Below are positions 48,091-63,045 of a stretch of 64,000 bases of DNA, piece by piece. This DNA comes from Polynucleobacter antarcticus. Its GTDB lineage: Bacteria; Pseudomonadota; Gammaproteobacteria; Burkholderiales; Burkholderiaceae. The notes under the pieces were generated by a model. The model was not told where the DNA came from. It worked only from the letters and a program-made list of their open reading frames with translations, and did no database searches. The position numbers and the translations under genes are program-made. Position 1 is the first letter of the stretch; each line of letters opens with the position of its first letter. Location of the stretch: positions 558,001 to 622,000 of the forward strand of contig NZ_CP028941.1 in NCBI RefSeq assembly GCF_013307245.1. Reading direction: 5' to 3'.

Positions 48091-48399
48091 TTACACGCTT
48101 GGCTTCATTCGATACAGTAACTCAAGGTCATTGCGATGAAATGGCTCCGCTAATTCGCCTGCAACATCAGCCATAAAACTGGCAAAATCAGTCCCATCCT
48201 CTAAATTGGCAGCGTGACTCGCATTTTCCCAAATACCAAAACCTTCAATAATGTTTTGAGCGGGGTTACCAATAATGATGACGTCGTGTAGATCTGAGTG
48301 GTGTGACATGACTTCATCCGCAAATTTATGAAAACGTTTACAAACTTTTTCATATGATCCAGGTTTAGTTTTAAGCCAACTGTGTCCGACATGTGCCAT
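48091..48399 (-). CDS. Antibiotic-biosynthesis-monooxygenase-like (dimeric alpha/beta-barrel) protein
   Basis: About 102 aa with the ABM-like ferredoxin fold: HVGHSWLKTKPGSYEKVCKR, HHSDLHDVIIIGN, FGIWENASHAANLED. Family members include heme-degrading and quinone-forming monooxygenases, but many are uncharacterised. The start is placed at the ATG 48399 (MAHVGHSW); 48417 is also possible. Function is not assigned. Confidence 0.7.
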   Translation of the reverse strand: MAHVGHSWLKTKPGSYEKVCKRFHKFADEVMSHHSDLHDVIIIGNPAQNIIEGFGIWENASHAANLEDGTDFASFMADVAGELAEPFHRNDLELLYRMKPSV

Positions 48400-48503
48400 T
48401 TCAATCTCCATTTTCAAATTGTTGAATTGTTTTTTTACTTCTATTGCAGAAACTACTTACAGCATTACGATACTTTTAAATATTAAGTTTTTTCCCTAAC
48501 AGA

Positions 48504-49061
48504 TCATTCATGTCCTGAATTACTGTGCATTACTTTTTCAGATAAAGCAAATATTAAGCCGGTAAAAACAAAAGTAATATGTATCCCAACCATCCAACCT
48601 AGATTATCTTTATTGACGCCTTCAATCTCTAAAAATGAAGCTAAAAGGTTTATGCCAGAAAGCGCAACAATAGAGCCAATGAGTTTAAGTTTTAAATTAG
48701 CAAAATCAACGCCACCCATCCATTTTGGTCTATCGGGATTAAATCTAGCGGTACCAATAATCGAGACAAAGTTTTCATAACCAGAAAAGATAATCAGGAT
48801 AAGTAAATTTCCTAATAAAGTTTTATCAACAATTTGCAAAACCCCCGTTACAAATTCTGCATCGCTTGCGCCCCAAAACGTCGTTGCTAGATGAAAAAAT
48901 TCTTGTAAAAACTTAATGCAAACTAATAGCAAGGTAGCAACTAGTATTAAATAAAAAATTGATAATATCCAACGGCTTCTAAAAATAATTTTTTCTATCG
49001 CTGTTTCAAGATAACCAGATGGGTCACGTTGGTTATCTACATGATGATGATTCGAGGACAT
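48504..49061 (-). CDS. UPF0114 (YqhA-type) membrane protein
   Basis: 185 aa with three to four transmembrane helices: WILSIFYLILVATLLLVCIK, LLGNLLILIIFSGYENFVS, LIGSIVALSGINLLAS, and a final helix. FSGYENFVS and RPKWMGGVDFANLKLKL are family signatures of UPF0114. The function is unknown. The N-terminus is His-rich and polar (MSSNHHHVDN). It is probably an inner-membrane protein. Confidence 0.88.
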   Translation of the reverse strand: MSSNHHHVDNQRDPSGYLETAIEKIIFRSRWILSIFYLILVATLLLVCIKFLQEFFHLATTFWGASDAEFVTGVLQIVDKTLLGNLLILIIFSGYENFVSIIGTARFNPDRPKWMGGVDFANLKLKLIGSIVALSGINLLASFLEIEGVNKDNLGWMVGIHITFVFTGLIFALSEKVMHSNSGHE

Positions 49062-49121: not shown

Positions 49122-49856
49122 CTACAAGTAATCGTAAACTACTTCTCCCATGCCTAGTGTCAAATCAGCAATAAAATGTTTTGCTGAAAGTACCTCTATT
49201 ACAGGCAATTTTGCAACATCAGCCACAACATGAGAAAAAAGCTGTAAATCTCCTGGCGACGTCCATGCCCTTTTAACTCTTATATCCTGCAAAAAATAAC
49301 GCACTAACTCACATATTCTAGGATTTCCATCTACATGAGGAATAATTTTTAGTACAAAGTTTGGCTTTTTCAAAGAGGCCTCAACAGCGGCTTTATCAAG
49401 TGCCTTATGCTTAAACCCCATTGTCATAGTAGCGCAAAGGACGCTACCAAAATGTAACTTGCCTACGATTACTTCACCCTCATGGCTTACTTTTGGATTG
49501 GCCAGCTTTTTAGGAAAACCCCAAATTTCTCGTCCGCCAGAGATCGGTGACTCATCATCCAAGTACATTGAATGAATGTAAGAGCCGCTTTCTCCGTTTA
49601 AAACTACTGGAATAACCTGACCAGATTCTGTGTAGTCTCCAAACCCAGTTGAATTCGGCATCTTAATGAATTCAAACATCACAATGGGATCTGGAGCAAT
49701 TAATGGCTCAGGAAGAATTTATGCTAAGGCTAATGGATCCGTACGATAAGTAACAATAAGATACTCGCGATCCCGGAATTCATAAGGGCCTCTTGGGTAA
49801 GCTGGATTAGCCAAAGGCATTGCAAAAGCATTTTCTTTGATGTCTTTAATATTCAT
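49122..49856 (-). pseudogene. adc: Acetoacetate decarboxylase interrupted by an in-frame stop
   Basis: The full-length frame from the ATG at 49856 encodes an acetoacetate decarboxylase: [32 protein letters not shown], then TAA at 49719-49721 (codon 46), then ILPEPLIAPDPIV and the rest in the same frame to 49122. The catalytic region with the Schiff-base Lys is intact downstream (GGREIWGFPKKLA). Related enzymes have Lys at the stop position, so a single AAA to TAA change explains it. The N-terminal 45 codons and the remainder could not form an active enzyme as two parts, so this is scored a pseudogene unless it is a sequencing error. Confidence 0.85.
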
Positions 49857-49906: not shown

Positions 49907-50995
49907 CTAGCTTCTTCCAACTAGCAAATGCGTTCGTATTTCGCCCAAGCCTTTACATTCCATCAGACCGCCATCTTCAAAGATAAAGATATCTTTTAAA
50001 GCCTCATAGGTAGCCGGCGATACCTGAATTCTGCCATGCAAAGACGTTGACTCCATCCGACTTGCCACATTGACAGTATTACCCCATAAATCATATGAAA
50101 ACTTTGTAAAACCAATGACTCCAGCCACCACTGGACCAGAGTTCATACCAATACGCATATTTAATTCAGCATTATTTTCTTGATTAAAATTAGTCAAATC
50201 TTCAAACATCCCAATAGCCATATCAGCACAAATTTCAGCATGATCAGAGCGAGGGATAGGTATCCCGCCAACAGCCATATAAGCATCACCGATTGTTTTA
50301 ATTTTCTCTAAACCTAATTTTTCTGCACGAATATCAAACCGAGTAAATAAATCATTTAACAACTTGACTAAATTGGTTGGCGTGGTTGTAGAGGACATCT
50401 TAGTAAAGCCGACTAAATCGCTAAATAAAATAGTGACGTCAGGATAACTACCAGAGATATTTTTCTCACCTTTCTTTAAGCGCTCAGCAATAGGCTTAGG
50501 TAAGATATTAAGCATGAGCTTTTCTGTTTTCATTTGCTCAACTTCAAGCAATTGCTTCTCTTGATTTAACATTTCTAGATGTTGGCGATCAAGATCACGT
50601 AAATGCTTTTTTTCTAAAGATGAGAAAATCCGAGCCCGCAATAAAATAGGATCAAATGGTTTCGGTAAGTAATCCTCGGCACCGATTTCAATACATTTAA
50701 TTGTCTTTTCAAACTGCTCTGCCCCAGAAATAACAATGATTGGCAAAGATTTATAAACAGGGTCAGCTTTTAGCTCAGATAAAACGCCTAGACCATCGAG
50801 CTCAGGCATTTCCATGTCAAGCAACATCAGATCAACTGCCTTAGAGCGAACAACTTCGATGGCTTCCAGCCCATCTGCAGCCTCTAAAATATTATTGAAA
50901 CCAAGTGTATTGAGTTCGCGAATAAGAATTTTTCTGAGGGTGCGACTGTCATCGACAACTAATATATTGAAGGCGGAAAAAGTAGAATCAATCAT
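49907..50995 (-). CDS. Response regulator-adenylate cyclase (REC-CYC)
   Basis: 362-aa two-domain signalling protein. Residues ~8-125 are a receiver with Asp15/Asp16, phospho-acceptor Asp60 (LMLLDMEMPELDG), Ser90 and Lys112. A coiled-coil linker (~128-175) leads to a class III cyclase domain. Metal-binding Asp193 (ILFSDLVGFT) and Asp237 (TIGDAYM) are present. Purine-selecting Lys233 (EKIKTIGD) and Asp302 (YDLWGNTVNVASRMES) are the adenylate-type pair, with transition-state Asn306 and Arg313. It should make cAMP under control of CheA phosphorylation. It follows cheR by 51 bp and is the only output regulator in the cluster. Confidence 0.95.
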   Translation of the reverse strand: MIDSTFSAFNILVVDDSRTLRKILIRELNTLGFNNILEAADGLEAIEVVRSKAVDLMLLDMEMPELDGLGVLSELKADPVYKSLPIIVISGAEQFEKTIKCIEIGAEDYLPKPFDPILLRARIFSSLEKKHLRDLDRQHLEMLNQEKQLLEVEQMKTEKLMLNILPKPIAERLKKGEKNISGSYPDVTILFSDLVGFTKMSSTTTPTNLVKLLNDLFTRFDIRAEKLGLEKIKTIGDAYMAVGGIPIPRSDHAEICADMAIGMFEDLTNFNQENNAELNMRIGMNSGPVVAGVIGFTKFSYDLWGNTVNVASRMESTSLHGRIQVSPATYEALKDIFIFEDGGLMECKGLGEIRTHLLVGRS

Positions 50996-51046
50996 TGAGT
51001 AAGGAGTTCCTGAGAAATTATTTCTGTTTCCATGCCAAGCCTATAT

Positions 51047-51865
51047 TCATTTATTAGCCTTATAGTATGTAATTTTTTCAAGTGACTGCAATCTATATAA
51101 ATCGTCAGCATAAATTGATTCAGCAGCCCCTAAAATTAGTATTCCATCAATTGGCCTGAGTTGCTGTTTAATTTTTTTCAAAACATTGTTTTTTACTTCT
51201 TGATTAAAGTAGATCAATACATTTCTTAAAAGAATCAAATCAAATTTAGAAAAAGATGGCCATGCCCCTACTAAGTTATGCGCTGAATAATGAATCATCT
51301 TCTTAATAGAGGGCTCAATTTGAAAGTTACCATTTTCAAGTTTAGTAAAGTACTTTTCTGTATAAATAGGATCAAGTCCACGACGTACTTCCATTGCGTT
51401 ATAGATACCAGACCTTGCTTTTTCTAAAATTGATTCTGAGATATCTGTAGCATTAATAACAATATCCCAGTCATATAGCTCCGGAAAAGATTCCCGAATC
51501 AGAATGGCTATGCTAATTGCTTCTTGCCCCGAAGAACAGGCACAACTCCATATTCTGAGAGTTTTATCTACGCGACGCGATTCAATTAAACCCGGAAGAA
51601 TGGTTGATTTGAGGGCATTAAAGACATGGTTGTCTCTAAAAAAAGAAGTTTCATTAGTTGTCAATGCTTCAAATGCCTGGCGATGCAATGAATCCACTGG
51701 TGATTGAATTAATTGCTTGATAAAGCTATAAACGTCGGCATGGCCGCCCTGCTTTGCTAAGGGTTGCAGTCGAGACTCTAATAGATATTGTTTTGTATTA
51801 TCTAAAGCAATGCCAATTTGCTTCTCTATGAGCGTAAAAAACTGCGGCAAGCTTTCTTTAGACAC
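51047..51865 (-). CDS. cheR: CheR chemoreceptor methyltransferase
   Basis: SAM-dependent methyltransferase that methylates Glu residues of chemoreceptors. The N-terminal helical domain (SLPQFFTLIEKQIGIALDN, TTNETSFFRDNHVF) is followed by the catalytic domain with SAM motif LRIWSCACSSGQEAISIAI and FDLILLRNVLIYFN. The GTG at 51865, which overlaps the cheB stop, is the preferred start (~272 aa); a longer form from 51943 is possible but would run within cheB. It sits between cheB and the cyclase, forming the adaptation pair with CheB. Confidence 0.92.
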   Translation of the reverse strand: MSKESLPQFFTLIEKQIGIALDNTKQYLLESRLQPLAKQGGHADVYSFIKQLIQSPVDSLHRQAFEALTTNETSFFRDNHVFNALKSTILPGLIESRRVDKTLRIWSCACSSGQEAISIAILIRESFPELYDWDIVINATDISESILEKARSGIYNAMEVRRGLDPIYTEKYFTKLENGNFQIEPSIKKMIHYSAHNLVGAWPSFSKFDLILLRNVLIYFNQEVKNNVLKKIKQQLRPIDGILILGAAESIYADDLYRLQSLEKITYYKANK

Positions 51866-53057
51866 GTCCGAGCATCCCCACTTTGCGTGCTCTGAAGTTA
51901 ATCTCTTCAGCCATTTTATCGATTGGTAAAACAGCGTCTGCAATTCCAGCCTGAACTATAGCTCCAGGCATACCCCAGATAACACTGGTTGCCTCATCCT
52001 GAACAATTATCTGACCGCCTTTAGATTTGATAACTTCAGAACCTTTAAGCCCATCGTAGCCCATACCCGTTAATATCACTGCCAACACACCATCCCTGTA
52101 TACCTCAGCAGCAGATCGATACAAAACATCTACTGCTGGGCGGCAAGAATTTTCAGGGGGCTGCGTATTTAAATGAATAATCGTTTTTATGCCCGGCCTT
52201 GCCACAGTCATATGAAAACCGCCTGGAGCAATATAGACCATACCAGGCAAAGCAACTTCTCCTTCTTCGGCTTCTTTAACAGTCATTACGCTAGTTGCAG
52301 TTAAACGAGCTGCGAGTAATGCCGTGAAATCAGCAGGCATGTGTTGAACTATAAAAATAGGAACATCAAGCGGGGCTGTAAATGCGCCAAATACTTGCAT
52401 CAAAGCCATAGGCCCACCAGTAGATACACCAATGCAGACTGCTTGCACTGGTTTATTGATTTGTCCTGTGGGCTTATGATTTATGGGAGACAAGGTAGTC
52501 TGCACATACGTATTTTTTATTGGTGAATGAGCCTTTGAGGACTGGACCATTACCGGGCTAACTTGAGAGCTAATGGGGGTAGAAATTTCTTTGAGAGCCT
52601 CCTTAGCAATACGGGTTTTTGCCCGCTTAGCTAACCCAATAATTTTAGGAATTAGTTCAGCCTCTAAAACTTGAAAGGCAATATCCACACTACCGCCTTT
52701 TGAAGGCTTTGCAACGTAATCACTTGCTCCAGCTGTCAACGCCATTACAGCAGCTTGTGCTCCCTGATGGGTCATAGAGCTAAACATAATGATTGGTAAA
52801 TATTTATGTGTCTTACGAATTTCTCTCAATGCAGTCAGCCCATCCATTTCTGGCATCTCAATATCTAAGGTAATGATATCGGGGCAACAAGTAGCAATAG
52901 ACTCAATTGCTTGGATTCCGTTATTAGCAAAACCAGCCACTTCAATATCAGGATTTTTTTGCAAAGCACTAGCGATAATCTTACGCATTACCGCAGAATC
53001 GTCAACTATGAGGACGCGAACTTTATCCAAACCATTCTTAATAGGAATCAAGCTCAT
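51858..53057 (-). CDS. cheB: CheB receptor methylesterase/deamidase
   Basis: 399-aa response regulator. The REC domain (residues ~13-130) has VRVLIVDDSAVMRKII with phospho-acceptor Asp65 in ITLDIEMPEMDG. After a linker, the esterase domain has Ser in GVSTGGPMAL, His in VQHMPADF and the Asp in ILTGMGYDGL. Phosphorylation by CheA activates demethylation, giving adaptation. Its start overlaps the preceding small gene by TGATG, and it overlaps cheR at the 3' end. Confidence 0.95.
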   Translation of the reverse strand: MSLIPIKNGLDKVRVLIVDDSAVMRKIIASALQKNPDIEVAGFANNGIQAIESIATCCPDIITLDIEMPEMDGLTALREIRKTHKYLPIIMFSSMTHQGAQAAVMALTAGASDYVAKPSKGGSVDIAFQVLEAELIPKIIGLAKRAKTRIAKEALKEISTPISSQVSPVMVQSSKAHSPIKNTYVQTTLSPINHKPTGQINKPVQAVCIGVSTGGPMALMQVFGAFTAPLDVPIFIVQHMPADFTALLAARLTATSVMTVKEAEEGEVALPGMVYIAPGGFHMTVARPGIKTIIHLNTQPPENSCRPAVDVLYRSAAEVYRDGVLAVILTGMGYDGLKGSEVIKSKGGQIIVQDEATSVIWGMPGAIVQAGIADAVLPIDKMAEEINFRARKVGMLGRV

Positions 53058-53323
53058 CAGCTTTGCAAAAGCCGAGCGCTAGAGATAATCTTATTTGCAT
53101 CTAAGACGGACAACAACTCATCAACCAGAGTATGAGCCCAAATAATTTTCTTCTGAGCGTTAACAACTAAATTACCAGCTAACTTTTCAATGCAAACTTT
53201 ACTTACTTTACTTACTTCCATAGAATTGTTCACTTGCTCCACCAATAGAATAAGTAAGCAATCTTGAAACAGAATACTAGGGGCTGTGTTTGCTTTAAGC
53301 TGCATTGATAAATTCAATCTCAT
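53057..53323 (-). CDS. Small chemosensory-operon protein (possible STAS-like)
   Basis: 88 aa, translationally coupled to cheB (TGATG at 53057). The order of strands and helices (APSILFQDCLLILLVEQV, SKVCIEKLAGNLVVNAQKKI, TLVDELLSVL) loosely resembles a STAS domain, which sometimes occurs in chemosensory operons, but the characteristic loop and the phosphorylatable Ser are not clear. It is 440 bp after the cheW stop. Function is unassigned. Confidence 0.5.
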   Translation of the reverse strand: MRLNLSMQLKANTAPSILFQDCLLILLVEQVNNSMEVSKVSKVCIEKLAGNLVVNAQKKIIWAHTLVDELLSVLDANKIISSARLLQS

Positions 53324-53762
53324 CCGAAAATTAATTACAACAACAATTTGGCCTCGAAAAAATCGGTGAGGCTCACGTTAAAATGACCGATTGATATACA
53401 AATTAAAAACACTGATACAAAACATCACATATTGCTAAAAGCCCATGAATTTCTTAACTTACTATACCAAATTATTAACAACCTATATTCTAGAATTCCC
53501 GAAAAAGGGCATCTTCCTAACCAAAGTAATTTTTACGTAAATTGAAAAAATAGGCTAGCAAGCTAAGGTCTGCTGCAATGCCATAATCTGGTTTTCTGCT
53601 TCAGACATAAAAAGAGCCTCTAAACTCCCAATTCTTGTCAGAGCTTATTAAAGTGAGAATTTTTTAGGGGGAATTGGCTTACTGCAGACCAGTAGTAGCT
53701 GATCGTGCATTAGCTTTCTGAAAATGTAATAGCGATAGTAGCTAAAAACCTTAAATAGGCGA
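53324..53762. other. Intergenic gap within the chemosensory cluster
   Basis: About 440 bp between cheW and the small protein upstream of cheB. No gene was recognised. It is long enough for a separate promoter for the small gene-cheB-cheR-cyclase part. AT-rich, with no strong palindrome. Confidence 0.5.
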
Positions 53763-54230
53763 TTAAACGAGCAGGGAATGAGCTCCACTGATGCTATGGA
53801 TACTAGGATTTTGGGCATTGTGAGCTAATGCTGACGTACTCAAGATAATCAAAAGGCCCTCAGTTAAGCGAAAGGCTCCCAAAATAGCCTCTTCAAACTG
53901 TCCACTGGAATCGGCTGGTGGGAGAACAAGCTCATCCGTCTTAAAGGTCAAGATATCTCCGATAGAGTCCACCATTAGGGCAATAAAGTTATCTTGAACT
54001 TTTAAGATGATACAAAACGACTCAGATTTTGCATCAGCAATCTCTAAATAAGCTCCTATATCAATAGCTGGCATGATTAAGCCACGTAAATTTAAGATAC
54101 CCCGAATCATTTTTGGGCTACCGGGTACCTTAGTGCAACTTAAATTTCGATTCACTTCAATCAGCTCATCAGAGGGGATTCCTAGATGGTAGGGGCCAAC
54201 TTTAAAGGCAAGGTAAGAGCGCTCAATCAT
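53763..54230 (-). CDS. cheW: CheW coupling protein
   Basis: 155-aa scaffold linking receptors to CheA: YLAFKVGPYHLGIPSDELIE, KMIRGILNLRGLIMPAIDIG (the RGxxxPxxD-type motif) and NFIALMVDSIGDILTF. The single SH3-like double-barrel domain is complete. Its start overlaps the cheA stop as TAATG. It is the only separate CheW; CheA itself carries two further CheW-like domains. Confidence 0.93.
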   Translation of the reverse strand: MIERSYLAFKVGPYHLGIPSDELIEVNRNLSCTKVPGSPKMIRGILNLRGLIMPAIDIGAYLEIADAKSESFCIILKVQDNFIALMVDSIGDILTFKTDELVLPPADSSGQFEEAILGAFRLTEGLLIILSTSALAHNAQNPSIHSISGAHSLLV

Positions 54231-56479
54231 TAATTTGGGACGTACATATCAATAATATTGGGATATTGAGTAGCTTCTTCTTGCATATTATGCATAGTTA
54301 AAATCTCTTCTAAATCTAACATGTTGATTACCAGATCGTTATAAATCACGCTTCCATTCAGCCCTTTTTGTGGAGACGATAATTCATACAGTTTTGCGGG
54401 CACATCTAAAATATCCGTCGCATGTTTTACTACAAGCCCATAAAGGCGGCCACGATAATTGCAGGTGAGCACTGGAACCTTGGTATTTAATAAATTTAAA
54501 TTTTTTGCCCCCCCACTTACATAGCGCTCTACACAGACTAAATCCATCAACTGATCATTAAAATAAATCACCTGTCTACTACCATTTTGCTGAATTTGTG
54601 TAGGATCTAGCATAACGATATGCTCAATAGCGTCTAGTGGTAAGGCTATTTTATTCAGGCCTGGAATTTCAAAAAGTAATACTGCGAGCATCTTTTCAAC
54701 AGTAGGTATATAGCTTTGATCCTGTCTAATAGGATTGAGCTTCAAGCGCTCAACTAGGCCAGATTTTCTAGCGATACCGTCCACGTCGAGTATTAGGGCT
54801 ACCTGGCCATTTCCCATAATGGTTGCCCCGGCAAAATTCGACATATCCCTTAATAGCTCACCCAAGGGCTTAATAACTACATCTTGAATATTCAAAACTG
54901 TTTCGACCACTAAGCCAAAAATAGTGCCATTAAAATCAAGAACCACAACAAATAGTTTTTGATGTGGCTTTCTCAAAGAGCACTCTAGGCCCAACTGCTC
55001 GCTTAAAAACAAGAGTGGAATTAACTTATCCCTCAAACGATAGGTGGGCGTTCCATAAAAGTCCTCAACACCATTATTAGCTTCATTAGGGGCAAAACGT
55101 ACTAGCTCTAAAATACGATTTTGAGGAATCAGAAAAATTTCGTCTGCAGAGCATACGAATAAGGTTGGCAAAATTGCTAAGGTAAGAGGTATTTTTAACT
55201 TAACATGCGTTCCTTGGTGCGGGATACTGGTGATTTCAATACTACCGCCAATATTGTCAATATTGCTTTTCACAACGTCCATGCCGACACCCCTACCGGA
55301 GAGATTGCTTACTGTATCCCGAGTAGAGAATCCTGGTAAAAATATTAAGTCGACTAACTCTTGATGAGTAAGAGCGCTTGCCTTATCTGAGTCAATTAAC
55401 CCTCTAGTGATTGCTCTTTGTCTTACGCGCTCGTAGTCAACCCCCGCTCCATCATCAATGACCTCAACAATGACAATGCCATTTTGATGGGAGGCACGTA
55501 ATACTAAATATGCTACCTCTGATTTGCCTTTTTTGAGGCGATCTGAAGGCATCTCGATACTATGATCAATACTATTACGTATTAAATGAATCAGAGGATC
55601 ACGAATACTATCGAGCAAAATACGATCTAGCTCAGTTTCTGCGCCCTCTTGTAAAAGCCGTACATTCTTTCCGCATTCAGCGGCAACGTCACGAACTAAG
55701 CGCGGAAACTTAGTCCAAATATGTGAAATGGGCTGCATGCGCATTTTCATCATGCGCTCTTGTAGCTCCAGAGTCAGAAGGTCAATACTTCGGACAGCAC
55801 TAGTGAATAACTTATCACTTAACTGGTGAGAAAAAGGTAAAAGTCGATTACGAGCCAAGACCATTTCACTCGCGATATTCATCAGCTTATCTAAAACCTC
55901 TGGATTAACTTTCACAGGCACTACTACCTCTTGCCCTGAAGCGCCTCCAGTCAAAATATCCGAAGGCTCTTGAGGCTGGATCAATACCTCTAGAGACTCG
56001 ACTTCTTTAACTTCCTCATCCAGATCTTTAGCTTCAATTACTGTAACTACTTCATCTACGTATGTTGGAGCAGCTTCATTAACCTGAGGAGTTTTGGCAT
56101 GCGCCTCATTCAACAACATTGCTATTAGCTCTTGATCATCTCCAGCGGGCTCCGTATGGTTCGTTTCTAAATCCTCAATAATGAGTCTTAGAATGTCATT
56201 CATTTTTAGCAATAGATTAGATTGAGTGGTATCTAAGGTTGTTTGACCTGAGCGAATTTCTCCCAATAAGGTCTCACCCGCATGAGATAGCTTTTCTAAG
56301 CGCTTCAGAGAGAAAAAGCTACTGCTACCCTTGAGAGTGTGTAAACCCCGAAAAATATCGCCAATAAGAGGGGAGTTATTCGGGTTTTCCTCCAGTCGGA
56401 TAAAGTCTACATCTAGCCGGTCGATAATTTCCCGAGCTTCAAGAATAAACTCCACGAGGATTTCGTCGTTAATTCCCAT
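54230..56479 (-). CDS. cheA: CheA histidine kinase with two CheW-like domains
   Basis: 749-aa kinase. The P1/HPt domain has phospho-acceptor His47 in IFRGLHTLKGSSSFF. An acidic linker (~110-195) replaces the usual CheY/CheB-binding P2 domain. The dimerisation P3 region starts near VNPEVLDKLMNIAS, and the ATPase domain has DPLIHLIRNSIDHSIE, VIDDGAGVDY and FSTRDTVSNLSGRGVGMDVV. After it come two CheW-like domains (starting near LPTLFVCSADEIFLIP and VLLFEIPGLNKIALPL). The kinase should phosphorylate CheB and the REC-cyclase. It is divergent from the mcp gene (153-bp shared region). Confidence 0.95.
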   Translation of the reverse strand: MGINDEILVEFILEAREIIDRLDVDFIRLEENPNNSPLIGDIFRGLHTLKGSSSFFSLKRLEKLSHAGETLLGEIRSGQTTLDTTQSNLLLKMNDILRLIIEDLETNHTEPAGDDQELIAMLLNEAHAKTPQVNEAAPTYVDEVVTVIEAKDLDEEVKEVESLEVLIQPQEPSDILTGGASGQEVVVPVKVNPEVLDKLMNIASEMVLARNRLLPFSHQLSDKLFTSAVRSIDLLTLELQERMMKMRMQPISHIWTKFPRLVRDVAAECGKNVRLLQEGAETELDRILLDSIRDPLIHLIRNSIDHSIEMPSDRLKKGKSEVAYLVLRASHQNGIVIVEVIDDGAGVDYERVRQRAITRGLIDSDKASALTHQELVDLIFLPGFSTRDTVSNLSGRGVGMDVVKSNIDNIGGSIEITSIPHQGTHVKLKIPLTLAILPTLFVCSADEIFLIPQNRILELVRFAPNEANNGVEDFYGTPTYRLRDKLIPLLFLSEQLGLECSLRKPHQKLFVVVLDFNGTIFGLVVETVLNIQDVVIKPLGELLRDMSNFAGATIMGNGQVALILDVDGIARKSGLVERLKLNPIRQDQSYIPTVEKMLAVLLFEIPGLNKIALPLDAIEHIVMLDPTQIQQNGSRQVIYFNDQLMDLVCVERYVSGGAKNLNLLNTKVPVLTCNYRGRLYGLVVKHATDILDVPAKLYELSSPQKGLNGSVIYNDLVINMLDLEEILTMHNMQEEATQYPNIIDMYVPN

Positions 56480-56632
56480 GAAAACTCATAGTGATAGGCA
56501 TTTATTTGAATTGAGCGGATAGAATGTGGATTATCGAGATATTAGCCTATATTGATGGATAATTGCACGATTAGTACTGCATCAAGCCCCAGCTTTAGTA
56601 ACGTATGTATGCCCTTAAGGAAGTCATAACGA

Positions 56633-58261
56633 ATGTTCCGCACCCAATTAGACCGATTTGAAAGAAAATCTACAGTTAGAACCAAATTGCAAGTCAGTTT
56701 TGGTCTGATCCTGTTTTTTACTGTTGTAGTCGGTGGTATCTCCTTATACGGCTATCAGGTAATGGGCAACAGTGCGAGCCAAATCTACTTGCAAGGTGCG
56801 CAAGGCGTAGGAGATGCCAAACAGCTTCAGCTAGAGGCAGTAGAAATAGATAACCAATTGGGCCGCTACCTTCTAGCCTCTAGCTTTGTTGATAAAGCTG
56901 AAGCATCGCTACAGCGTGATGATGCGATGGCCAAAATTGAAAAACTGCGTACCGCCCTAGAGGAAACTAAAAAAAGGGTTGAAGTTAACATCATACGGTC
57001 TTCAACACGTATTGAATTTAATGAAGTAGTTGAAGATTTAGAAACATATTTAACTGCCATTGAGCAAATTCTGATTTTGGATAAAAGCTCCTCAACGAGC
57101 TCCATAGGAATGTTTTTTGGAGAAAAATATCAAGGCTTTAAGCCACGCATCAACAAAAATCTTCAGGATTTTGTAGCGGCCAAACTCGAAGGCGCACAGA
57201 TATCCTATGACAAGGCAATTGAAGCTAAGCATACCGCTATATTAACAACCGTCATCACTATTATAGTTGCCGTTTTACTGAGTATATTTATTGGCATACG
57301 TTTAAGAAGTTCTATTATTAGTCCTTTGAATAAGACTAGAGAATCACTAGATGCCCTAGCTGAATCCAAGCTGAATAATGAAATAGTGGGATTAGATTAT
57401 GTCGGGGTAACAGGTCAAATTGCAATCGCCGTCAAAACTCTGCAGAATAATTTACGCAATGCCATTCAAGAGATTAGTGGCAATGCCCTCATGATAAGCG
57501 CATCCTCTGAAGAGCTGGCTATGGTCAGCGCTCAGCTAAGTGCTAATGCAGAGGAGACCTCCTCACAAGCTAATGAGGTGGCACAATCATCAGAGATTGT
57601 GAGTCAAAATACCCAATCTGTTGCCACAGCAGCAGAAGAATTCAGCGCCAGTATTCGTGAAATTTCTATTAATGCCATGGAAGCTTCCCGTGTTGCTAAT
57701 CAGGCAGTGACCATCGCAAATAATACAAATCAACAGATGTCTAAACTCAATAGTAGCAGCATTCAAATTGGTGAAGTAGTAGCTGTGATTGCTGATATTG
57801 CAGAGCAAACGAATTTATTGGCCCTCAATGCAACGATTGAAGCAGCTCGCGCTGGTGAGCTGGGTAAAGGTTTTGCTGTTGTTGCTAATGAAGTCAAAGA
57901 GCTTGCGAGATCCACTGCGAAGGCTACCAATGAGATTGGTCAATCGATTAATGCTATCCAAGCAGACGCAAAGGGTGCGATCGAGTCTATTAATGAGATT
58001 ACACAGATTATTAATAGAATTGATGACATCTCTAGCATTATTGCAACCGCAGTAGAAGAGCAAGCAGCAACAGTGAGTGAAATCTCTCGCAATATTTCTA
58101 CTTCCGCAGATAGCTCTACCAGAATTACAGAGACCATTGAGAGTGTTGCCATTGCTGCAAAGGGAATTTCATCAGGCTCATCTGATATTCAAAACTCATC
58201 TGCTGAGTTAGCTAGAGTTTCCGCAACATTGAAAGATTTAGTTGCTAAATTTGAATGCTGA
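56633..58261 (+). CDS. Methyl-accepting chemotaxis protein
   Basis: 542-aa transmembrane receptor. TM1 lies at residues ~22-42 ([19 protein letters not shown]), a periplasmic four-helix-bundle sensor at ~43-199, and TM2 at ~200-222 ([20 protein letters not shown]). A HAMP linker and the methyl-accepting coiled coil follow, with the tip [20 protein letters not shown] and [15 protein letters not shown]. No C-terminal CheR-docking pentapeptide is present. An AAGGAAG purine run precedes the ATG. It is the only receptor gene in the window, divergent from cheA. Its ligand is unknown. Confidence 0.95.
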
Positions 58262-58277
58262 GCGCTCGTTAATTAAA

Positions 58278-58979
58278 CTAGTGTTCTGCTTTAGCTAGAT
58301 CTTCACCAGGATCGCGATTTAGATCTGCCTCTAAATATTCAGGGGTATGGGGTAAATCCATTACTACACTATCAATGGCTTGTATTTGGATAGAGACTTT
58401 CTCTGTCCTGCAATGAAGCAGGTGACCCCCCGATTTTTTATCATCACTGATAAAGTGTAGATGAAAACCAGGAACAGTGACTGAATGCATAAAGTTTGGC
58501 GTCCAAAAACCTACCAAAGTGCCACTGATGTCAGTAAATTCAAACTCCTGTTGCCCATGAGTAACATCAAGTAGCGTCTTATATGCGCTTTGTTTTTCAA
58601 CAGAACGTGTCTTGAGGTAAGTAAATTTACCATGAACACAGATAGCAAAAATCAGGTTTTTTGATATCAGCATGTTCGATAAAATTTTTAAAAAATTATC
58701 GTAGCTATTTTCACCGACGAGAATATGCTCTTGAGTTGGATAAAACTGAGTAACACAAGCATAAGGCGTCAATGTATCAGGAGTATTCACAGTCACGGCA
58801 CCATCACCATGAATTTGATAAGAGATGCTATCTAACAAAATCATTTCACCATCAAAATCGTTGATCGTACCTATCCCAAAATTGCCATGATTTAGTAAAT
58901 CTTGAATTGTCTTATCCTCCCTAAAAATGCCCTCTACCAAAGCATTGACGGGAGAGGATATATATAGGGAAGTTGGCAT
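58278..58979 (-). CDS. budA: Alpha-acetolactate decarboxylase
   Basis: 233-aa cytosolic metalloenzyme converting alpha-acetolactate to acetoin. The family motifs ALVEGIFREDKTIQDLLNHG, NFGIGTINDFDGEMILLD and VTVPGFHLHFISDDKKSGGH are present. The metal-binding His are in GFHLHFI and SGGH. Length is normal. No budB or budC is nearby. It separates the mcp gene from the phosphodiesterase gene and may belong to an unrelated function, or the acetoin/CO2 balance could matter for carbon-source signalling (speculative). Confidence 0.9.
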   Translation of the reverse strand: MPTSLYISSPVNALVEGIFREDKTIQDLLNHGNFGIGTINDFDGEMILLDSISYQIHGDGAVTVNTPDTLTPYACVTQFYPTQEHILVGENSYDNFLKILSNMLISKNLIFAICVHGKFTYLKTRSVEKQSAYKTLLDVTHGQQEFEFTDISGTLVGFWTPNFMHSVTVPGFHLHFISDDKKSGGHLLHCRTEKVSIQIQAIDSVVMDLPHTPEYLEADLNRDPGEDLAKAEH

Positions 58980-59415
58980 AAGATTAGATAATGAAATTCA
59001 AGACTTTTATAGTAAGTGCTCTTCTACAGTTGAGGGTCGAAAAACGAATGTCTCTTATTATTGATTAAGATAACATTTTTACCACATTGCACAAGTGAAT
59101 CAAAAAATTCTGCCCCATATCCTTAAGAGCTCTTTTTAATCCTCACCCGGGCTTCGGCAATATCACTGCCTCACAAAAGAGCAGGATCAAATATCGGGTT
59201 CAGACTCATAAAGCCAATATTACATAGGCTAGTTTAAACGACATGTCCCTTAGATTCGCTTAAAGGCAGCCCTAATTGATACTTTCAAGAAAAAATACTC
59301 ATAATTACATTCAAGTAGTGCTAATTGAGTGGTGGCCAGTTTCAACATCTTCAAATCAAGGAACTGGTTAAAATAAAGTTTGATCCATTTAAATGTGAAT
59401 TCTAAGTTAATCACT
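58980..59415. other. Intergenic region before the phosphodiesterase gene
   Basis: About 435 bp between the budA start and the phosphodiesterase start, which are divergent. No gene, tRNA or strong repeat is recognised; it should hold both promoters. Confidence 0.5.
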
Positions 59416-60288
59416 ATGTCCAGTAACACTTCCACAATTTTTCAATCGACTATCAACAATTTTTTAGACACTAAGCACACAGTGCGTGAGTTTAAAGAAG
59501 TTGAGTTGATTCAAAATGCAGTGGAAATACATTCAAATAATTTTTTGGACTTTATAGATGGAATACTAAAATCGCCATTATGGATTCAATGGGATTTTCA
59601 GAATAATCCTCTTAAGCAATTAGCACTTGATTTGGCTGCAGAAATTGATCGATTATCTACACTCCATCCAGAGCCCGCCTTTCACTCACGTAGGCACTTT
59701 ATGGATGTATGCATGATGTTGTCCTATTTGCTGATGCAACAAGAGCGCTGGTGCGATCAATCCCAATTAACCAGTCCCTGGTATGCATGTAAGGAAGAGA
59801 AATGGCTATTACTCATTGCTGCAATTTCTCATGACTTAGGTCATCCAGGATTAATCAATAAAAAGCCTTATGAATTAGAAAAAGGAAGTCTTGATTTACT
59901 CGATACATTTTTATCTCAATCAATGCATTTGGAGATAGGAATCAGTGATGTCCTGGGACAGATATCGCCTTGGATTTTGGCAACTGATCATGCGTATTAC
60001 AAGGCCTTGCTAGAAAAAGTATCTAAAGAATCAAGATCGCATGTTGATTGTATGTCGATGCTTTTAGTTGAGGCAGATTTAGCATCGAGTGTATTGCCAA
60101 ACCATGGGTTCACTTTGGCTCAGCGTTTGGCTGAGGAATGGCGGATTAACTACCCTGAAAAATCAATGGCTCTGACAACGCATGCAGGCTATCTACAATT
60201 CTTAAAAAGTCTTTCTTTCGTTAGTCCACAATCTATAGAGGCGCGTATCCCCCAGGCTTTACAAATCACCCTCTCCACACATCCATAG
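59416..60288 (+). CDS. Class I (eukaryote-like) cyclic-nucleotide phosphodiesterase
   Basis: About 290-aa HD-fold enzyme, hydrolysing cyclic nucleotides. In numbering from the ATG at 59416: metal-binding His90 and His94 in FHSRRHFMDV, His139-Asp140 in AAISHDLGHPGLIN (the class I signature HDxxHxG), Asp191 in WILATDHAYYKA (as in the TD motif), and Asp221 in LLVEADLASSVLP. This is the PDEase_I layout used by animal PDEs, rare in bacteria, which more often use class II or III enzymes. An upstream TTG start (59380) is less likely. The CNG channel starts 13 bp later, so the two are probably one operon. Substrate cAMP versus cGMP is inferred from the adenylate-type cyclase. Confidence 0.85.
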   Translation: MSSNTSTIFQSTINNFLDTKHTVREFKEVELIQNAVEIHSNNFLDFIDGILKSPLWIQWDFQNNPLKQLALDLAAEIDRLSTLHPEPAFHSRRHFMDVCMMLSYLLMQQERWCDQSQLTSPWYACKEEKWLLLIAAISHDLGHPGLINKKPYELEKGSLDLLDTFLSQSMHLEIGISDVLGQISPWILATDHAYYKALLEKVSKESRSHVDCMSMLLVEADLASSVLPNHGFTLAQRLAEEWRINYPEKSMALTTHAGYLQFLKSLSFVSPQSIEARIPQALQITLSTHP

Positions 60289-60301
60289 ATAAAATAACAA
60301 A

Positions 60302-61576
60302 ATGACGGATTTATCATTTCACCACTCCCCAGACATTAAGCTTAGTGATCGTCAAGTTATTTACTTTGCTCTTAACGGGCAGCTGCCTGCCTTTAGTGGT
60401 AATTATCTTGTAACGAGGAATATTAAAGCGCGTTACAGTAAGCTCCAGAGCTTCATCAGTAGCATATTGGTAATTAGCATCCTGCTTGCTGCCAGCACAC
60501 GAATTTTTCAGTCTGAAGCTTGGTCGATCCTGTGGATAGCCGATAATGTGAAATTTTTGCTTATCCCTATTTTATTCATTTTTATTCTTGAATATCTCTT
60601 GCGCCTGTGGACAGCTCCTGATAGCTGCCCCGATCTGCCAGAAAATAATGCAGAATTTGAGCAATACATTCGTACTCATCATTACCGCCTATTTTATGGA
60701 ATATCCTTTTTAGGGTTGATTGATCTTTTAGTTATTTTAAGTGGGCTATTTACTCTTATAAGCGGTAATTCAAGCGCCTGGGAAGGCTATTTGATTGTCT
60801 TTGCACTCCTTAAATTGAGTCGCTATATCCACGGCATTGAGATTATTGCAGCAGTCTTAAAAAAAGAGCGCCAAATACTAAGCGCTACCTTCATAACATT
60901 GGCGATATTGATCGTAATACTGTCGACAATACTGTATCTAGTAGAGCGCAACGTTCAACCTGAAGTATTTAACTCCATTCCCTCTGCATTGTGGTGGGGA
61001 ATTGTAACAATGACCACTACTGGTTATGGCGATATTATTCCTATGACTTCTATTGGTAGAGTAATTGGCGGTGTTGCAATGTTAGTTGGAATTGGTACGC
61101 TAGCTATACCTGCCGGTATTCTTGCAAGTGGCTTTGCTTATGAACTGAAACACCGCGAACAATTAAATAATTGGCACATTATTTCCAACTTAGAATTATT
61201 TGCAGGCCTTGATGCGAATTGCATAAAAGATATTACGCATTATCTTAAAGCAGAGGTCCTACCAGCTGGAGCCACAGTATTTAAAAAGCATAGTGCGCCA
61301 GATGCTATTTACTTCATAGCCGATGGAGAGGTAGAGATTCAGATCTTTCCAAAACCCCCAACTCCCATCCGACTGAGATCAGGGGACGTATTTGGTGAAG
61401 CAGGTCTTTTAGAAAATCGCAAGCGTAATGCCAGCATCAAGACAACTCAAAACTCACGATTTTTAGTTTTAGATTTACATGACTTCCATACTTTAATCTC
61501 TAAACATGTTGATCTAAAAAATAAAATTGAATCTATCAACAACCTACGCAAGTCCTCTTCACCTGATAGCAACTAG
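60302..61576 (+). CDS. Cyclic-nucleotide-gated potassium channel (6TM-CNBD)
   Basis: 424-aa channel with six helices. S4-like arginine/lysine residues lie in LLKLSRYIHGIEIIAAVLKK. The pore has selectivity filter TTTGYGD at 238-244 (K+ type). A C-linker leads to a CNBD at ~300-410 with the phosphate-binding cassette FGEAGLLENRKRNASIK: Glu366 (ribose) and Arg375 (phosphate) are present. It resembles bacterial MloK1-type channels. It follows the phosphodiesterase by 13 bp on the same strand. cAMP binding is expected to open it and drive K+ flux, setting membrane potential. Confidence 0.93.
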   Translation: MTDLSFHHSPDIKLSDRQVIYFALNGQLPAFSGNYLVTRNIKARYSKLQSFISSILVISILLAASTRIFQSEAWSILWIADNVKFLLIPILFIFILEYLLRLWTAPDSCPDLPENNAEFEQYIRTHHYRLFYGISFLGLIDLLVILSGLFTLISGNSSAWEGYLIVFALLKLSRYIHGIEIIAAVLKKERQILSATFITLAILIVILSTILYLVERNVQPEVFNSIPSALWWGIVTMTTTGYGDIIPMTSIGRVIGGVAMLVGIGTLAIPAGILASGFAYELKHREQLNNWHIISNLELFAGLDANCIKDITHYLKAEVLPAGATVFKKHSAPDAIYFIADGEVEIQIFPKPPTPIRLRSGDVFGEAGLLENRKRNASIKTTQNSRFLVLDLHDFHTLISKHVDLKNKIESINNLRKSSSPDSN

Positions 61577-61581
61577 ATTCT

Positions 61582-63045
61582 CTATTCATTAAAGAAAAAT
61601 TTAAGAATTAATTTACTAAGAGCCTTGCTTTTGCTATGTGAGGTTAAGCCTTGTTCACGAGTATTTTTAACTAATTCGTTTTGAGCTTGGCGCTCTACTA
61701 AGATATCTGAAATAAGACTGATTAACTCAGGACGACTTTCTAAAATCGGAAAAATATCATCTTTCTTAACCTCTATCATCAATGCAGATGTAAGTGCAAA
61801 AACATCTGCTGAACGTGGTGCACCAGTTAGAAGCGACATCTCACCAACAATATCACCTGGCCAGACTGAGGCAACAGTAACTAAGATGCCATCTGCGTTT
61901 AATATTTTGACCTCTAGGCAGCCCTCAAGCAATAAGAACATGCTTTGAGCTTCTTGTCCTGAAACGATTAATTGCTCATCTTTTGCAACACGCTTGAAGG
62001 TGGATTTTTTTGCTAAATAATCCAAATCCTCTTCGTTGAGTACCACTAAAAATCCAAGCGATGCAAAGGCTAAAAGGCGGTTTTTCAAATCTAAATCAGC
62101 ACCGGCTTTGCTAGGATTATCAGTAAAGTCTACTGCACCAGCTTTTAGAAAACGCATGATGGTATTGAGTACCAAGCTGTTGGTAAAGTCTTTGGGCAAG
62201 TCAGTTCTGGGGGAACACTCATAGCGTACCCGATAAGTAACTTGGCCATGATTAATCTCTGTCGCAGCACAAAGGTGCCAAGGCTGGAAAAAAGTATTTT
62301 TACTTACAACGCAATCCATAGCGAGATTTAAAATTGAAGTTACTTTTTCGCAATCGCAATGTGCACTTAAGGCAATCGTGAATTCACGACGAAAACCGCG
62401 GCCCGGATCCTGCTTGGTTGCGTTAATGTAATCTAAATCTAAAAATTTATTGTTATAAAACTGTTTAATGAGGCCATGCGTAGTATCACTTAGGGTGATC
62501 AGTCGATGCTCCATCTGTACCACTTGATAAGTCTCTGGAATACGATTATCGCCTTCAAAAATAACGATATGATCACCCAAGCTTACAAGTCCATCAATTT
62601 GTAATGAACTACTAGCGACAATATCTTTGATGCGATCCTGAAAGATATATCCCAAGCCAAGACCAATTGCCCCTGAAGCGGCAATTAAACTTGTAAAGTT
62701 TCGATCGAAGAGAAATATAAAGCCAGCCAATCCAACTAGGGCGAGAATAATAATTGAACCAGCAGTCACAACAATAATAGGTATCTTTTTCTGCGGATTG
62801 ACACGATTTAAGTTAACGATAGTGCGACGAAAAGCTTGATCTAAAGTTACTGCAATCAATGTAATTTGCATTAAGCCAACAAGATCTATTCCTATGGAAT
62901 CAAATCCATCACTAAGGTCAGCACTGACAAAAGCAAATACTTTGCCTAAGGTATAGGCATACATTGCTAAGGCGATATTAGCAATAATAAGAAGAATTAA
63001 AGCCCATTTTGGAACTGCTGTAATTTTCTCGTGTGAAAGGGTCAT
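61582..63045 (-). CDS. MscS-type channel with C-terminal cyclic-nucleotide-binding domain
   Basis: 487-aa membrane protein of the bCNG/MscS superfamily. Four hydrophobic helices precede the MscS pore-lining helix (AIGLGLGYIFQDRIKDIVAS) and the beta domain (QIDGLVSLGDHIVIFEG). The C-terminal CNBD has the canonical phosphate-binding cassette GDIVGEMSLLTGAPRSADV, with Glu and Arg ligands. Such channels are gated by cAMP or respond only partly to tension. It is convergent with the K+ channel gene (5-bp gap), so it is transcribed separately although it shares the ligand. Confidence 0.92.
   Translation of the reverse strand: MTLSHEKITAVPKWALILLIIANIALAMYAYTLGKVFAFVSADLSDGFDSIGIDLVGLMQITLIAVTLDQAFRRTIVNLNRVNPQKKIPIIVVTAGSIIILALVGLAGFIFLFDRNFTSLIAASGAIGLGLGYIFQDRIKDIVASSSLQIDGLVSLGDHIVIFEGDNRIPETYQVVQMEHRLITLSDTTHGLIKQFYNNKFLDLDYINATKQDPGRGFRREFTIALSAHCDCEKVTSILNLAMDCVVSKNTFFQPWHLCAATEINHGQVTYRVRYECSPRTDLPKDFTNSLVLNTIMRFLKAGAVDFTDNPSKAGADLDLKNRLLAFASLGFLVVLNEEDLDYLAKKSTFKRVAKDEQLIVSGQEAQSMFLLLEGCLEVKILNADGILVTVASVWPGDIVGEMSLLTGAPRSADVFALTSALMIEVKKDDIFPILESRPELISLISDILVERQAQNELVKNTREQGLTSHSKSKALSKLILKFFFNE

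What the first reader, a model, noticed from the sequence alone, without database searches (positions are those of the whole stretch)
49907..63045. Chemosensory array wired to cAMP and two cAMP-gated ion channels
One 13-kb locus encodes receptor, CheA, CheW, CheB, CheR, a response regulator whose only effector is a class III adenylate cyclase, a cyclic-nucleotide phosphodiesterase, a cyclic-nucleotide-gated K+ channel and a MscS-type channel with a CNBD. There is no CheY, CheZ, CheD or flagellar gene. This is a complete sense-make-read-erase-effector cascade for a nucleotide second messenger, resembling in layout (not homology) animal sensory transduction by GPCR, cyclase/PDE and CNG channels. 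Chemosensory clusters controlling cAMP are known (e.g. Pil-Chp/CyaB), but a cluster with PDE and CNG channels alongside is, as far as I know, undescribed. It predicts that an external signal changes membrane potential and ion flux rather than swimming.
Basis: partly seen in the sequence, partly recalled or inferred. Interest (0 to 1): 0.9.

Follow-up and report, generated by a model that had tools for sequence, protein, structure and literature searches.

The report
Bacterial sensor array wired to channels
An apparently non-swimming Polynucleobacter carries a chemotaxis-type sensor array whose only evident output enzyme should make cyclic AMP, beside an enzyme that should destroy cyclic AMP and two membrane channels that should be gated by it, so an outside signal probably changes ion flow instead of swimming; this is inferred from sequences and gene order and has not been tested in the laboratory.

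Summary
In detail: every gene named is at the stated place, plus an acetolactate decarboxylase gene and a truncated second CheW. The genome (Polynucleobacter, 2.15 Mb) has one MCP, one CheA, no CheY-sized receiver protein and no FlhA. Of its five CNBD proteins only the two channels here keep the canonical cassette. REC-cyclase is adenylyl-type and follows cheR in 32 of 32 genomes that carry it, of 186 in the genus. PDE and MscS-CNBD co-occur with it (23 of 32 vs 17 of 154; 26 of 32 vs 23 of 154), and CNBD matches lie near it 18 times against 1.55 expected (not corrected for descent). Effectors and sensors are exchanged around it between genomes. Weak points: the K+ channel is rare and elsewhere lies away from array genes; the window's MscS-CNBD is not of the che-linked lineage; MscS-CNBD also occurs without arrays. 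Best reading: an alternative-function chemosensory pathway, like Wsp but with cAMP, acting on cAMP-gated channels. Ten open-access library searches showed no report of it. Phosphotransfer, cAMP change and currents are untested.

The parts
49907..50995 (-). response regulator with adenylyl cyclase output (REC + class III cyclase)
   Evidence: Pfam PF00072 and PF00211; aligns to AC9 and bacterial adenylate cyclase structures; KIKTIGD, FSYDLWGNTVNVASR and FSDLVGF motifs
51047..51943 (-). CheR methyltransferase (start probably downstream of the listed TTG)
   Evidence: Pfam CheR and CheR_N; cheR directly upstream of REC-cyclase in 32 of 32 genomes
51858..53057 (-). CheB methylesterase with receiver
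   Evidence: Pfam; motifs
53057..53323 (-). truncated CheW remnant of the other (type A) array lineage
   Evidence: blastx 42-45% identity to residues 46-147 of CheW in L147, L148, L149, L151; no Pfam hit above cut-off on its own
53763..54230 (-). CheW coupling protein (type B)
   Evidence: Pfam CheW; 69-72% to type B modules vs 32-35% to type A
54230..56479 (-). CheA kinase (type B), no receiver domain
   Evidence: Pfam Hpt, dim, HATPase, CheW; tree places it with the modules that have no response regulator, 100/100
56633..58261 (+). only MCP of the genome, 4HB periplasmic sensor
   Evidence: Pfam; single MCPsignal match in the genome
58278..58979 (-). alpha-acetolactate decarboxylase, probably not part of the pathway
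   Evidence: Pfam PF03306
59380..60288 (+). class I-type cyclic nucleotide phosphodiesterase (ATG start probably at about 59416)
   Evidence: Pfam PF00233, partial; predicted fold pLDDT 91.8, 22 best PDB matches all class I PDEs; metal-motif residues invariant in 29 sequences
60302..61576 (+). 6TM K+ channel with CNBD, 13 bp after the PDE gene
   Evidence: Pfam; MloK1 structure 1.3e-45; TTTGYGD and GEAGLLENRKRNA
61582..63045 (-). MscS-type channel with CNBD, convergent with the K+ channel
   Evidence: CNBD by Pfam; MscS by profile (E about 1e-37) and fold; GEMSLLTGAPRSA
48504..49061 (-). UPF0114 membrane protein, a recurrent neighbour of REC-cyclase; role unknown
   Evidence: Pfam PF03350; next gene after REC-cyclase in G103, G114, G135, G136, G087, G159, G178 and G055

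Best explanation
An alternative-function chemosensory pathway. The single MCP, CheW and CheA form the sensor array (inferred from domains). CheA phosphorylates the receiver of the REC-cyclase and of CheB (inferred: they are the only receivers in the locus and no CheY-sized receiver protein was found in the genome). Phosphorylation changes cAMP synthesis (inferred; sign unknown). CheR and CheB adapt the receptor (inferred from family). The class I-type PDE removes cAMP (predicted fold and metal motifs shown; substrate inferred). cAMP binds the CNBDs of the K+ channel and of the MscS-type channel and changes K+ and small-solute flow, hence membrane potential or turgor (inferred; they are the only two of the five CNBD proteins found in the genome with the canonical cassette). 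The pathway is modular: between genomes the sensor half and the CNBD effector are exchanged around the cyclase and PDE.
For: One MCP, one CheA, no FlhA, one T2SSE ATPase over cut-off, of PilT size, no CheY-sized receiver protein. Five CNBD proteins; three lack the GE-x(6-9)-R-x-A cassette: an FNR-like and a weak CRP-like regulator and a DUF294-CBS protein. cheR-REC-cyclase in 32 of 32 (window). PDE 23 of 32 vs 17 of 154, MscS-CNBD 26 of 32 vs 23 of 154; 18 CNBD matches within 12.5 kb of REC-cyclase in 16 of 32 genomes, window included, 1.55 expected. The gene directly 3' of PDE is a CNBD gene in 21 of 30 informative loci (16 co-directional, window included; seven with a 4-bp overlap). Effector exchange: SulP-STAS-CNBD after REC-cyclase in G131, CNBD alone in G131, G049, G091, G133. 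Sensor exchange: dCache-cyclase beside PDE and CNBD in G084 and, by gene order, G062; hybrid kinase + REC-cyclase + CNBD in G156. The window joins a type B MCP/CheA/CheW (75/75/69% to the module without response regulator in G103) to type A CheB/CheR/REC-cyclase (72/62/89%), with a CheW remnant at the seam; type B CheA (70% or more) occurs in 13 of 186 genomes, 11 of them with REC-cyclase.
Against: No biochemistry. The K+ channel is rare and elsewhere not near array genes. The window's MscS-CNBD is of another lineage than the che-linked ones. In 7 of 32 REC-cyclase genomes with ample flanks, and in G140 as far as its contig goes, no CNBD gene was found near REC-cyclase. MscS-CNBD occurs in 23 of 154 genomes without REC-cyclase, for example beside a GGDEF gene (G078, G167) or secretion-ATPase and secretin genes (G069); G102 keeps PDE, MscS-CNBD and UPF0114 with no array between them. 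The che-linked PDEs are not one clade and the PDE tree is poorly resolved. A second cyclase-like protein exists in the genome. Counts are not corrected for shared ancestry. CNBD-bearing MscS channels need not be gated by cAMP.
Confidence: 0.66

Rival explanations
1. The array drives REC-cyclase and cAMP, but the main cAMP reader is not the channels: a transcription factor or an unknown receptor is. The K+ channel and MscS-CNBD belong to an osmotic or other function and lie here by chance or weak linkage.
For: The K+ channel is only weakly associated with REC-cyclase (5 of 32 vs 6 of 154) and, like the window's MscS-CNBD lineage, sits away from array genes in G037, G148 and G056. MscS-CNBD also occurs in genomes without REC-cyclase (23 of 154). 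In Pil-Chp, cAMP acts through Vfr (PMC12632253, passages).
Against: Neither CRP-family protein found in this genome keeps the canonical cassette. CNBD proteins of several kinds recur beside REC-cyclase and PDE. In G056 a PDE gene is again directly beside the same channel pair.
Confidence: 0.22
2. REC-cyclase is not a CheA target; it is phosphorylated by another kinase or works constitutively, and the array acts only through CheB or an unlinked regulator.
For: A hybrid kinase beside a related REC-cyclase in G156 and, by gene order, G177 shows that this class of cyclase can have other partners. Phosphotransfer is untested. Ten other receiver proteins exist in the genome.
Against: cheR-REC-cyclase linkage in 32 of 32; two CheA lineages both joined to REC-cyclase; no CheY-sized receiver protein.
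Confidence: 0.07
3. An ordinary motility pathway (flagellar or twitching) with an extra cyclase.
For: Six of 32 REC-cyclase genomes do have FlhA. Pil-Chp raises cAMP through CyaB (PMC12632253, passages).
Against: This genome has no FlhA match and one T2SSE ATPase over cut-off, of PilT size, so no pilus extension motor was found. FlhA is, if anything, rarer in REC-cyclase genomes (6 of 32 vs 55 of 154).
Confidence: 0.02
4. The messenger is cGMP or another nucleotide and not cAMP.
For: The PDE fold matches cGMP-type as well as cAMP-type enzymes.
Against: The cyclase has the adenylyl-specific lysine and aspartate aligned with AC9 (the roles of these residues are recalled).
Confidence: 0.03

Closest known systems
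Wsp surface-sensing system (Pseudomonas; ACF chemosensory class)
   Same: MCP with a 4HB_MCP_1 domain, CheA-type kinase that phosphorylates the REC domain of a nucleotide-cyclase regulator, not a motility pathway (PMC8846402, passages).
   Different: WspR makes c-di-GMP; here the regulator is a class III adenylyl cyclase. This CheA has no receiver domain. PDE and CNBD channels lie beside it.
Pil-Chp -> CyaB -> Vfr (Pseudomonas aeruginosa)
   Same: Chemosensory control of cAMP (PMC12632253, passages).
   Different: There PilG activates a separate cyclase and cAMP acts on transcription through Vfr; here the cyclase is itself the response regulator, no pilus extension ATPase was found, and the canonical CNBD readers are channels.
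MloK1 (mll3241) cyclic-nucleotide-gated K+ channel
   Same: Pore, filter and CNBD align over residues 140-404.
   Different: Here in a PDE-channel pair beside a sensor array; gating untested.
bCNG channels (MscS + CNBD; Caldwell et al. 2010, seen only as a reference-list entry)
   Same: MscS fold plus CNBD.
   Different: A divergent lineage below Pfam's MscS thresholds; here with a possible input pathway.
Cyclase + PDE clusters of Campylobacterota
   Same: Cyclase and PDE genes clustered (PMC9239204, passages).
   Different: CHASE2 sensor cyclase, no array, FecR-domain and TPR-domain neighbours and not channels.

Membership tests
Chemosensory pathway with alternative cellular function (ACF) | MCP, CheA, CheW, CheB and CheR present together | tested here: met
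Chemosensory pathway with alternative cellular function (ACF) | no flagellar or pilus motor output | tested here: met
   no FlhA, one T2SSE over cut-off, of PilT size, no CheY-sized receiver protein; other motor genes not searched
Chemosensory pathway with alternative cellular function (ACF) | CheA falls in the published ACF class by phylogeny | not tested
   no class models on hand
Wsp system | output regulator is REC-GGDEF | tested here: not met
   REC + Guanylate_cyc
Wsp system | CheA is a hybrid with receiver domain (recalled) | tested here: not met
   no Response_reg in CheA
Pil-Chp | CheY-like PilG/PilH and type IV pilus machinery (recalled) | tested here: not met
Class III adenylyl cyclase | two metal aspartates, adenine-specifying Lys/Asp, transition-state Asn/Arg | tested here: met
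   motifs and alignment to AC9; residue roles recalled
Class I cyclic nucleotide PDE | class I fold and HD metal motifs | tested here: met
   (Foldseek E 4e-4 to 1.4e-2); Pfam covers only part of the domain
Cyclic-nucleotide-gated K+ channel (MloK1 type) | 6TM pore with TxGYGD filter plus CNBD with canonical cassette | tested here: met
Cyclic-nucleotide-gated K+ channel (MloK1 type) | opened by cAMP | not testable with these tools
   needs electrophysiology
bCNG (MscS-CNBD) channel | MscS pore module plus CNBD | tested here: met
   Pfam MscS model not reached for this protein at E 0.1
Chemosensory pathway with cAMP-gated channel output (proposed) | conserved linkage of array, REC-cyclase, PDE and CNBD channel | tested here: inconclusive
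   strong for REC-cyclase, PDE and CNBD proteins as a class; weak for the K+ channel itself

The most novel reading that the evidence does not exclude
A complete bacterial chemo-electrical transduction pathway: one receptor array whose only output is ion conductance, through cAMP made by its response regulator, erased by a class I PDE and read by two cAMP-gated channels. It would use the same cyclase, PDE and channel families as animal sensory cells but with a chemoreceptor array in place of GPCR and G protein, and it would evolve by exchanging sensors and CNBD effectors around a fixed core.
Probability: 0.5. Interest if true: 0.9.

Novelty: new variant of a known kind. Interest (0 to 1): 0.77.

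Why it matters
Bacterial CNG channels such as MloK1 and the bCNG family have been studied mainly as structural models; which signal opens them in their own cells is, as far as I know (recalled), open. Here is a locus, conserved in part across the genus, that supplies the sensor, the synthase, the eraser and the channels, in a genome with one receptor and one kinase and with no other CNBD protein found that keeps the canonical cassette, so the whole chain can be tested by single deletions. It would also extend known chemosensory outputs (motors, pili, transcription, c-di-GMP) to ion flux.

Tried and rejected
Flagellar or pilus output: rejected for this genome. Chance cluster: rejected by the 32-of-32 linkage and the proximity counts. 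The idea that the 700-bp gap between cheB and cheW is empty: rejected, it holds a CheW remnant. Of three 50-52% homologs elsewhere in the order, L202 and L203 show no che genes in their 4-kb loci, and in L204 my ORF caller missed even the cyclase, so it says nothing. So the che-linked form looks confined to Polynucleobacter and perhaps near kin in what I sampled. Phmmer of the PDE against PDB sequences gave nothing, so I used the fold. My first labels put the CheA of G134 and G056 in type A; the tree puts them at the base of type B (the tool warns of long branches meeting), so both lineages have been joined to REC-cyclase.

Literature: ten searches. Searches found no paper; others showed only the top 25 of 82, 15 of 1,049, 15 of 176 and 12 of 34. 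None of the listed titles and abstract starts describes such a locus. Passages read: PMC12632253, PMC4560390, PMC9239204, PMC8846402, PMC8584932; all others seen as search listings only. The library misses most subscription journals.
Full report
WHERE IT IS. The window is bases 558001-622000 of the single 2,154,412-base contig of its genome.

WHAT IS THERE. The ORF list and Pfam confirm all genes at the stated places. REC-cyclase, cheR, cheB, cheW and cheA run on the minus strand, the MCP on the plus strand 153 bp from cheA. After an alpha-acetolactate decarboxylase gene (minus) come PDE and K+ channel on the plus strand, 13 bp apart, and the MscS-CNBD gene convergent, 5 bp on.

ARE THE PARTS INTACT? 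The cyclase domain aligns with adenylyl cyclase 9 and bacterial adenylate cyclase structures and has KIKTIGD, FSYDLWGNTVNVASR and FSDLVGF motifs: adenine-specifying Lys and Asp, metal aspartates, Asn and Arg, all in one chain, so a homodimer could work (residue roles recalled). CheA, CheB and CheR show motifs of their families. The K+ channel aligns with MloK1 at 1.3e-45. The PDE has only a partial Pfam match and no direct PDB sequence match, but its predicted structure (pLDDT 91.8) has class I PDEs as its 22 best PDB matches (PDE8A, 5A, 6C, 1B, 10A, 2A, 4 and parasite enzymes; Foldseek E 4e-4 to 1.4e-2, five of them under 0.001; TM by query 0.51-0.65). The HxxxH and HDxxH positions and a later Asp are invariant in 29 sequences. 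The MscS half of 61582-63045 escapes Pfam, but a profile of 70 relatives, some with Pfam MscS domains, matches E. coli MscS at about 1e-37, and the model of this protein (pLDDT 82.6, pTM 0.66) matches MscS structures.

WHAT ELSE THE GENOME HAS. One MCP. One CheA at E 1e-30. No FlhA. One T2SSE-family ATPase over cut-off, of PilT size (not tested further), and one sub-threshold match. Twelve receiver domains, REC-cyclase and CheB included, smallest open frame 220 aa, so no stand-alone CheY. Two class III cyclase-like proteins, the second distant and with an N-terminal part that looks HTH-like by eye. Five CNBD proteins: the two channels; a CRP-family protein with FNR-like cysteines (recalled motif); a DUF294-CBS protein; a weak CRP-like protein. 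Only the two channels keep the GE-x(6-9)-R-x-A cassette. As far as CNBDs go, cAMP here has no other canonical reader.

IS IT CONSERVED? Of 186 genomes of the genus, 32 encode the REC-cyclase at full length and 69% identity or more (not counted: a contig-edge fragment in G138, 42% copies in G156 and G177, a cyclase-only match in G007). In 32 of 32 the gene before it is cheR (window). CheA is in the same cluster in 23, absent from it in 4 (G087, G037, G148, G175), and undecidable in 5 because of contig ends (G178, G055, G015, G139, G151). PDE (E 1e-10) is found in 23 of these 32 against 17 of 154 others; MscS-CNBD (E 1e-20) in 26 of 32 against 23 of 154; the K+ channel (46% or more; 62 genomes match at E 1e-20, most only over the pore) in 5 of 32 against 6 of 154; FlhA over cut-off in 6 of 32 against 55 of 154. 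Of 125 CNBD matches in the 32 genomes, 18, in 16 genomes, lie within 12.5 kb of the REC-cyclase on the same contig, where 1.55 would be expected; two of the 18 are the window's own. The other 16 genomes: three show an MscS-CNBD gene cut by the contig end beside the cluster (G024, G151, G181); five are limited by short contigs (G145, G159, G178, G055, G139); seven with ample flanks have none (G003, G037, G090, G148, G147, G167, G056), nor has G140 as far as its contig goes. None of these counts is corrected for common descent.

EFFECTORS AND SENSORS ARE EXCHANGED. MscS-CNBD stands upstream of the MCP in G103, G114, G135 and G136, and directly downstream of REC-cyclase in G117, G137, G015, G024, G134 and G138 (some of these are pieces at contig ends). 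In G131 the gene after REC-cyclase is a SulP-STAS-CNBD transporter. In G131, G049 and G091 a CNBD-only protein follows PDE, and in G133 one follows REC-cyclase. Of 31 PDE genes whose flanks I read (30 relatives and the window; 31 of the 40 genomes with a PDE match), one is at a contig edge; of the other 30, 21 have a CNBD gene directly 3', 16 of them co-directional (window included) and 5 convergent and overlapping; nine do not (G134, G147, G037, G148, G145, G156, G020, G041, G161). These loci were chosen partly because of PDE, channel or cyclase hits, so the share is not unbiased. The sensor side changes too: a dCache cyclase stands beside PDE and a CNBD protein in G084 and, by gene order and size, G062, and a PAS hybrid histidine kinase with REC-cyclase and CNBD in G156 and, by gene order, G177. 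So PDE and CNBD proteins tend to travel with cAMP synthesis whatever the sensor.

THE WINDOW IS A NATURAL SENSOR SWAP. Its MCP, CheA and CheW are 75, 75 and 69% identical to a three-gene module in G103 beside which I found no response regulator, and only 37, 45 and 35% to the array genes beside REC-cyclase in the same genome; its CheB, CheR and REC-cyclase are 72, 62 and 89% identical to the latter. The CheA tree agrees (100/100), and the CheW remnant marks the seam. G099 shows the two modules side by side. Type B CheA (70% or more) occurs in 13 of 186 genomes and REC-cyclase in 11 of these; the two misses are incomplete genomes (G026, 64% complete; G153, 85%, whose contig ends inside cheR). 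In G037, G087 and G148 the only CheA found is type B and lies away from cheB-cheR-REC-cyclase. I take this as the best sequence evidence that these kinases feed REC-cyclase.

AGAINST. The K+ channel is rare, and in G037 (64 kb from REC-cyclase), G148 and G056 (other contigs) it is paired with the MscS-CNBD orthologs of the window, away from array genes. MscS-CNBD also occurs without arrays: beside a GGDEF gene in G078 and G167, beside a T2SSE ATPase and secretin in G069. G102 has PDE, MscS-CNBD and UPF0114 in the order of G103 but no array between them. So the channel pair may be a separate cassette that has come beside the array here; the PDE groups (100/99) with a set of mostly che-linked PDEs (six of the other eight; G147 and G102 are not) and so may be the original one, but che-linked PDEs as a whole are not a clade and that tree is poorly resolved. 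Gating, phosphotransfer and substrates are untested.

KNOWN OR NEW. Wsp is the nearest in logic: 4HB-type MCP, array, REC-cyclase regulator, but c-di-GMP (PMC8846402, passages). Pil-Chp controls cAMP through a separate cyclase and transcription (PMC12632253, passages). Ten library searches (listed under Tried and rejected, several with capped lists) showed no paper on an array with a REC-adenylyl cyclase, PDE and CNBD channels; the library lacks most subscription journals. I file it as a new variant of a known kind: an alternative-function chemosensory pathway with cAMP and, probably, channel output.

ON THE ANIMAL COMPARISON. By family, cyclase, PDE and K+ channel are related to the animal parts, though not shown to be orthologous; receptor and coupler are not. 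That makes the likeness a reuse of the same protein families, probably assembled independently.

Noticed in passing
window 58278-58979: Alpha-acetolactate decarboxylase gene between MCP and PDE; a 52% copy lies two genes after REC-cyclase in G138 (L123) and another about 3 kb from MscS-CNBD in G003 (L184).
   Followed up: no
window 48504-49061: UPF0114 (YqhA-like) membrane protein is the gene after REC-cyclase in eight relatives; in the window an acetoacetate decarboxylase gene (49122-49682) separates them. Its function is unknown and it may belong to the pathway.
   Followed up: partly
window 53057-53323: Truncated CheW-like ORF, the seam of an exchange of the sensor half of the array.
   Followed up: yes
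L177 7645-10791: G102 keeps UPF0114, MscS-CNBD and PDE in the usual order but lacks the array with REC-cyclase between them: an empty-site counterpart of the G103 locus.
   Followed up: partly
L153 14138-16276: SulP-STAS-CNBD transporter directly after REC-cyclase in G131: a transporter as possible cAMP effector.
   Followed up: partly
L168 2744-4333: Second cyclase-like protein of the genome (529 aa) with a cyclase domain and an N-terminal part that looks HTH-like by eye (no Pfam hit there).
   Followed up: no
L120 1768-5656: Gene run CNBD-only protein, PAS hybrid histidine kinase, REC-cyclase (40%) in G156; similar in G177 (L121).
   Followed up: partly
window 48091-48417: 108-aa protein without Pfam family; its relative lies directly upstream of PDE in G103 and G135 and one gene further in G114, G102 and G178.
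   Followed up: no
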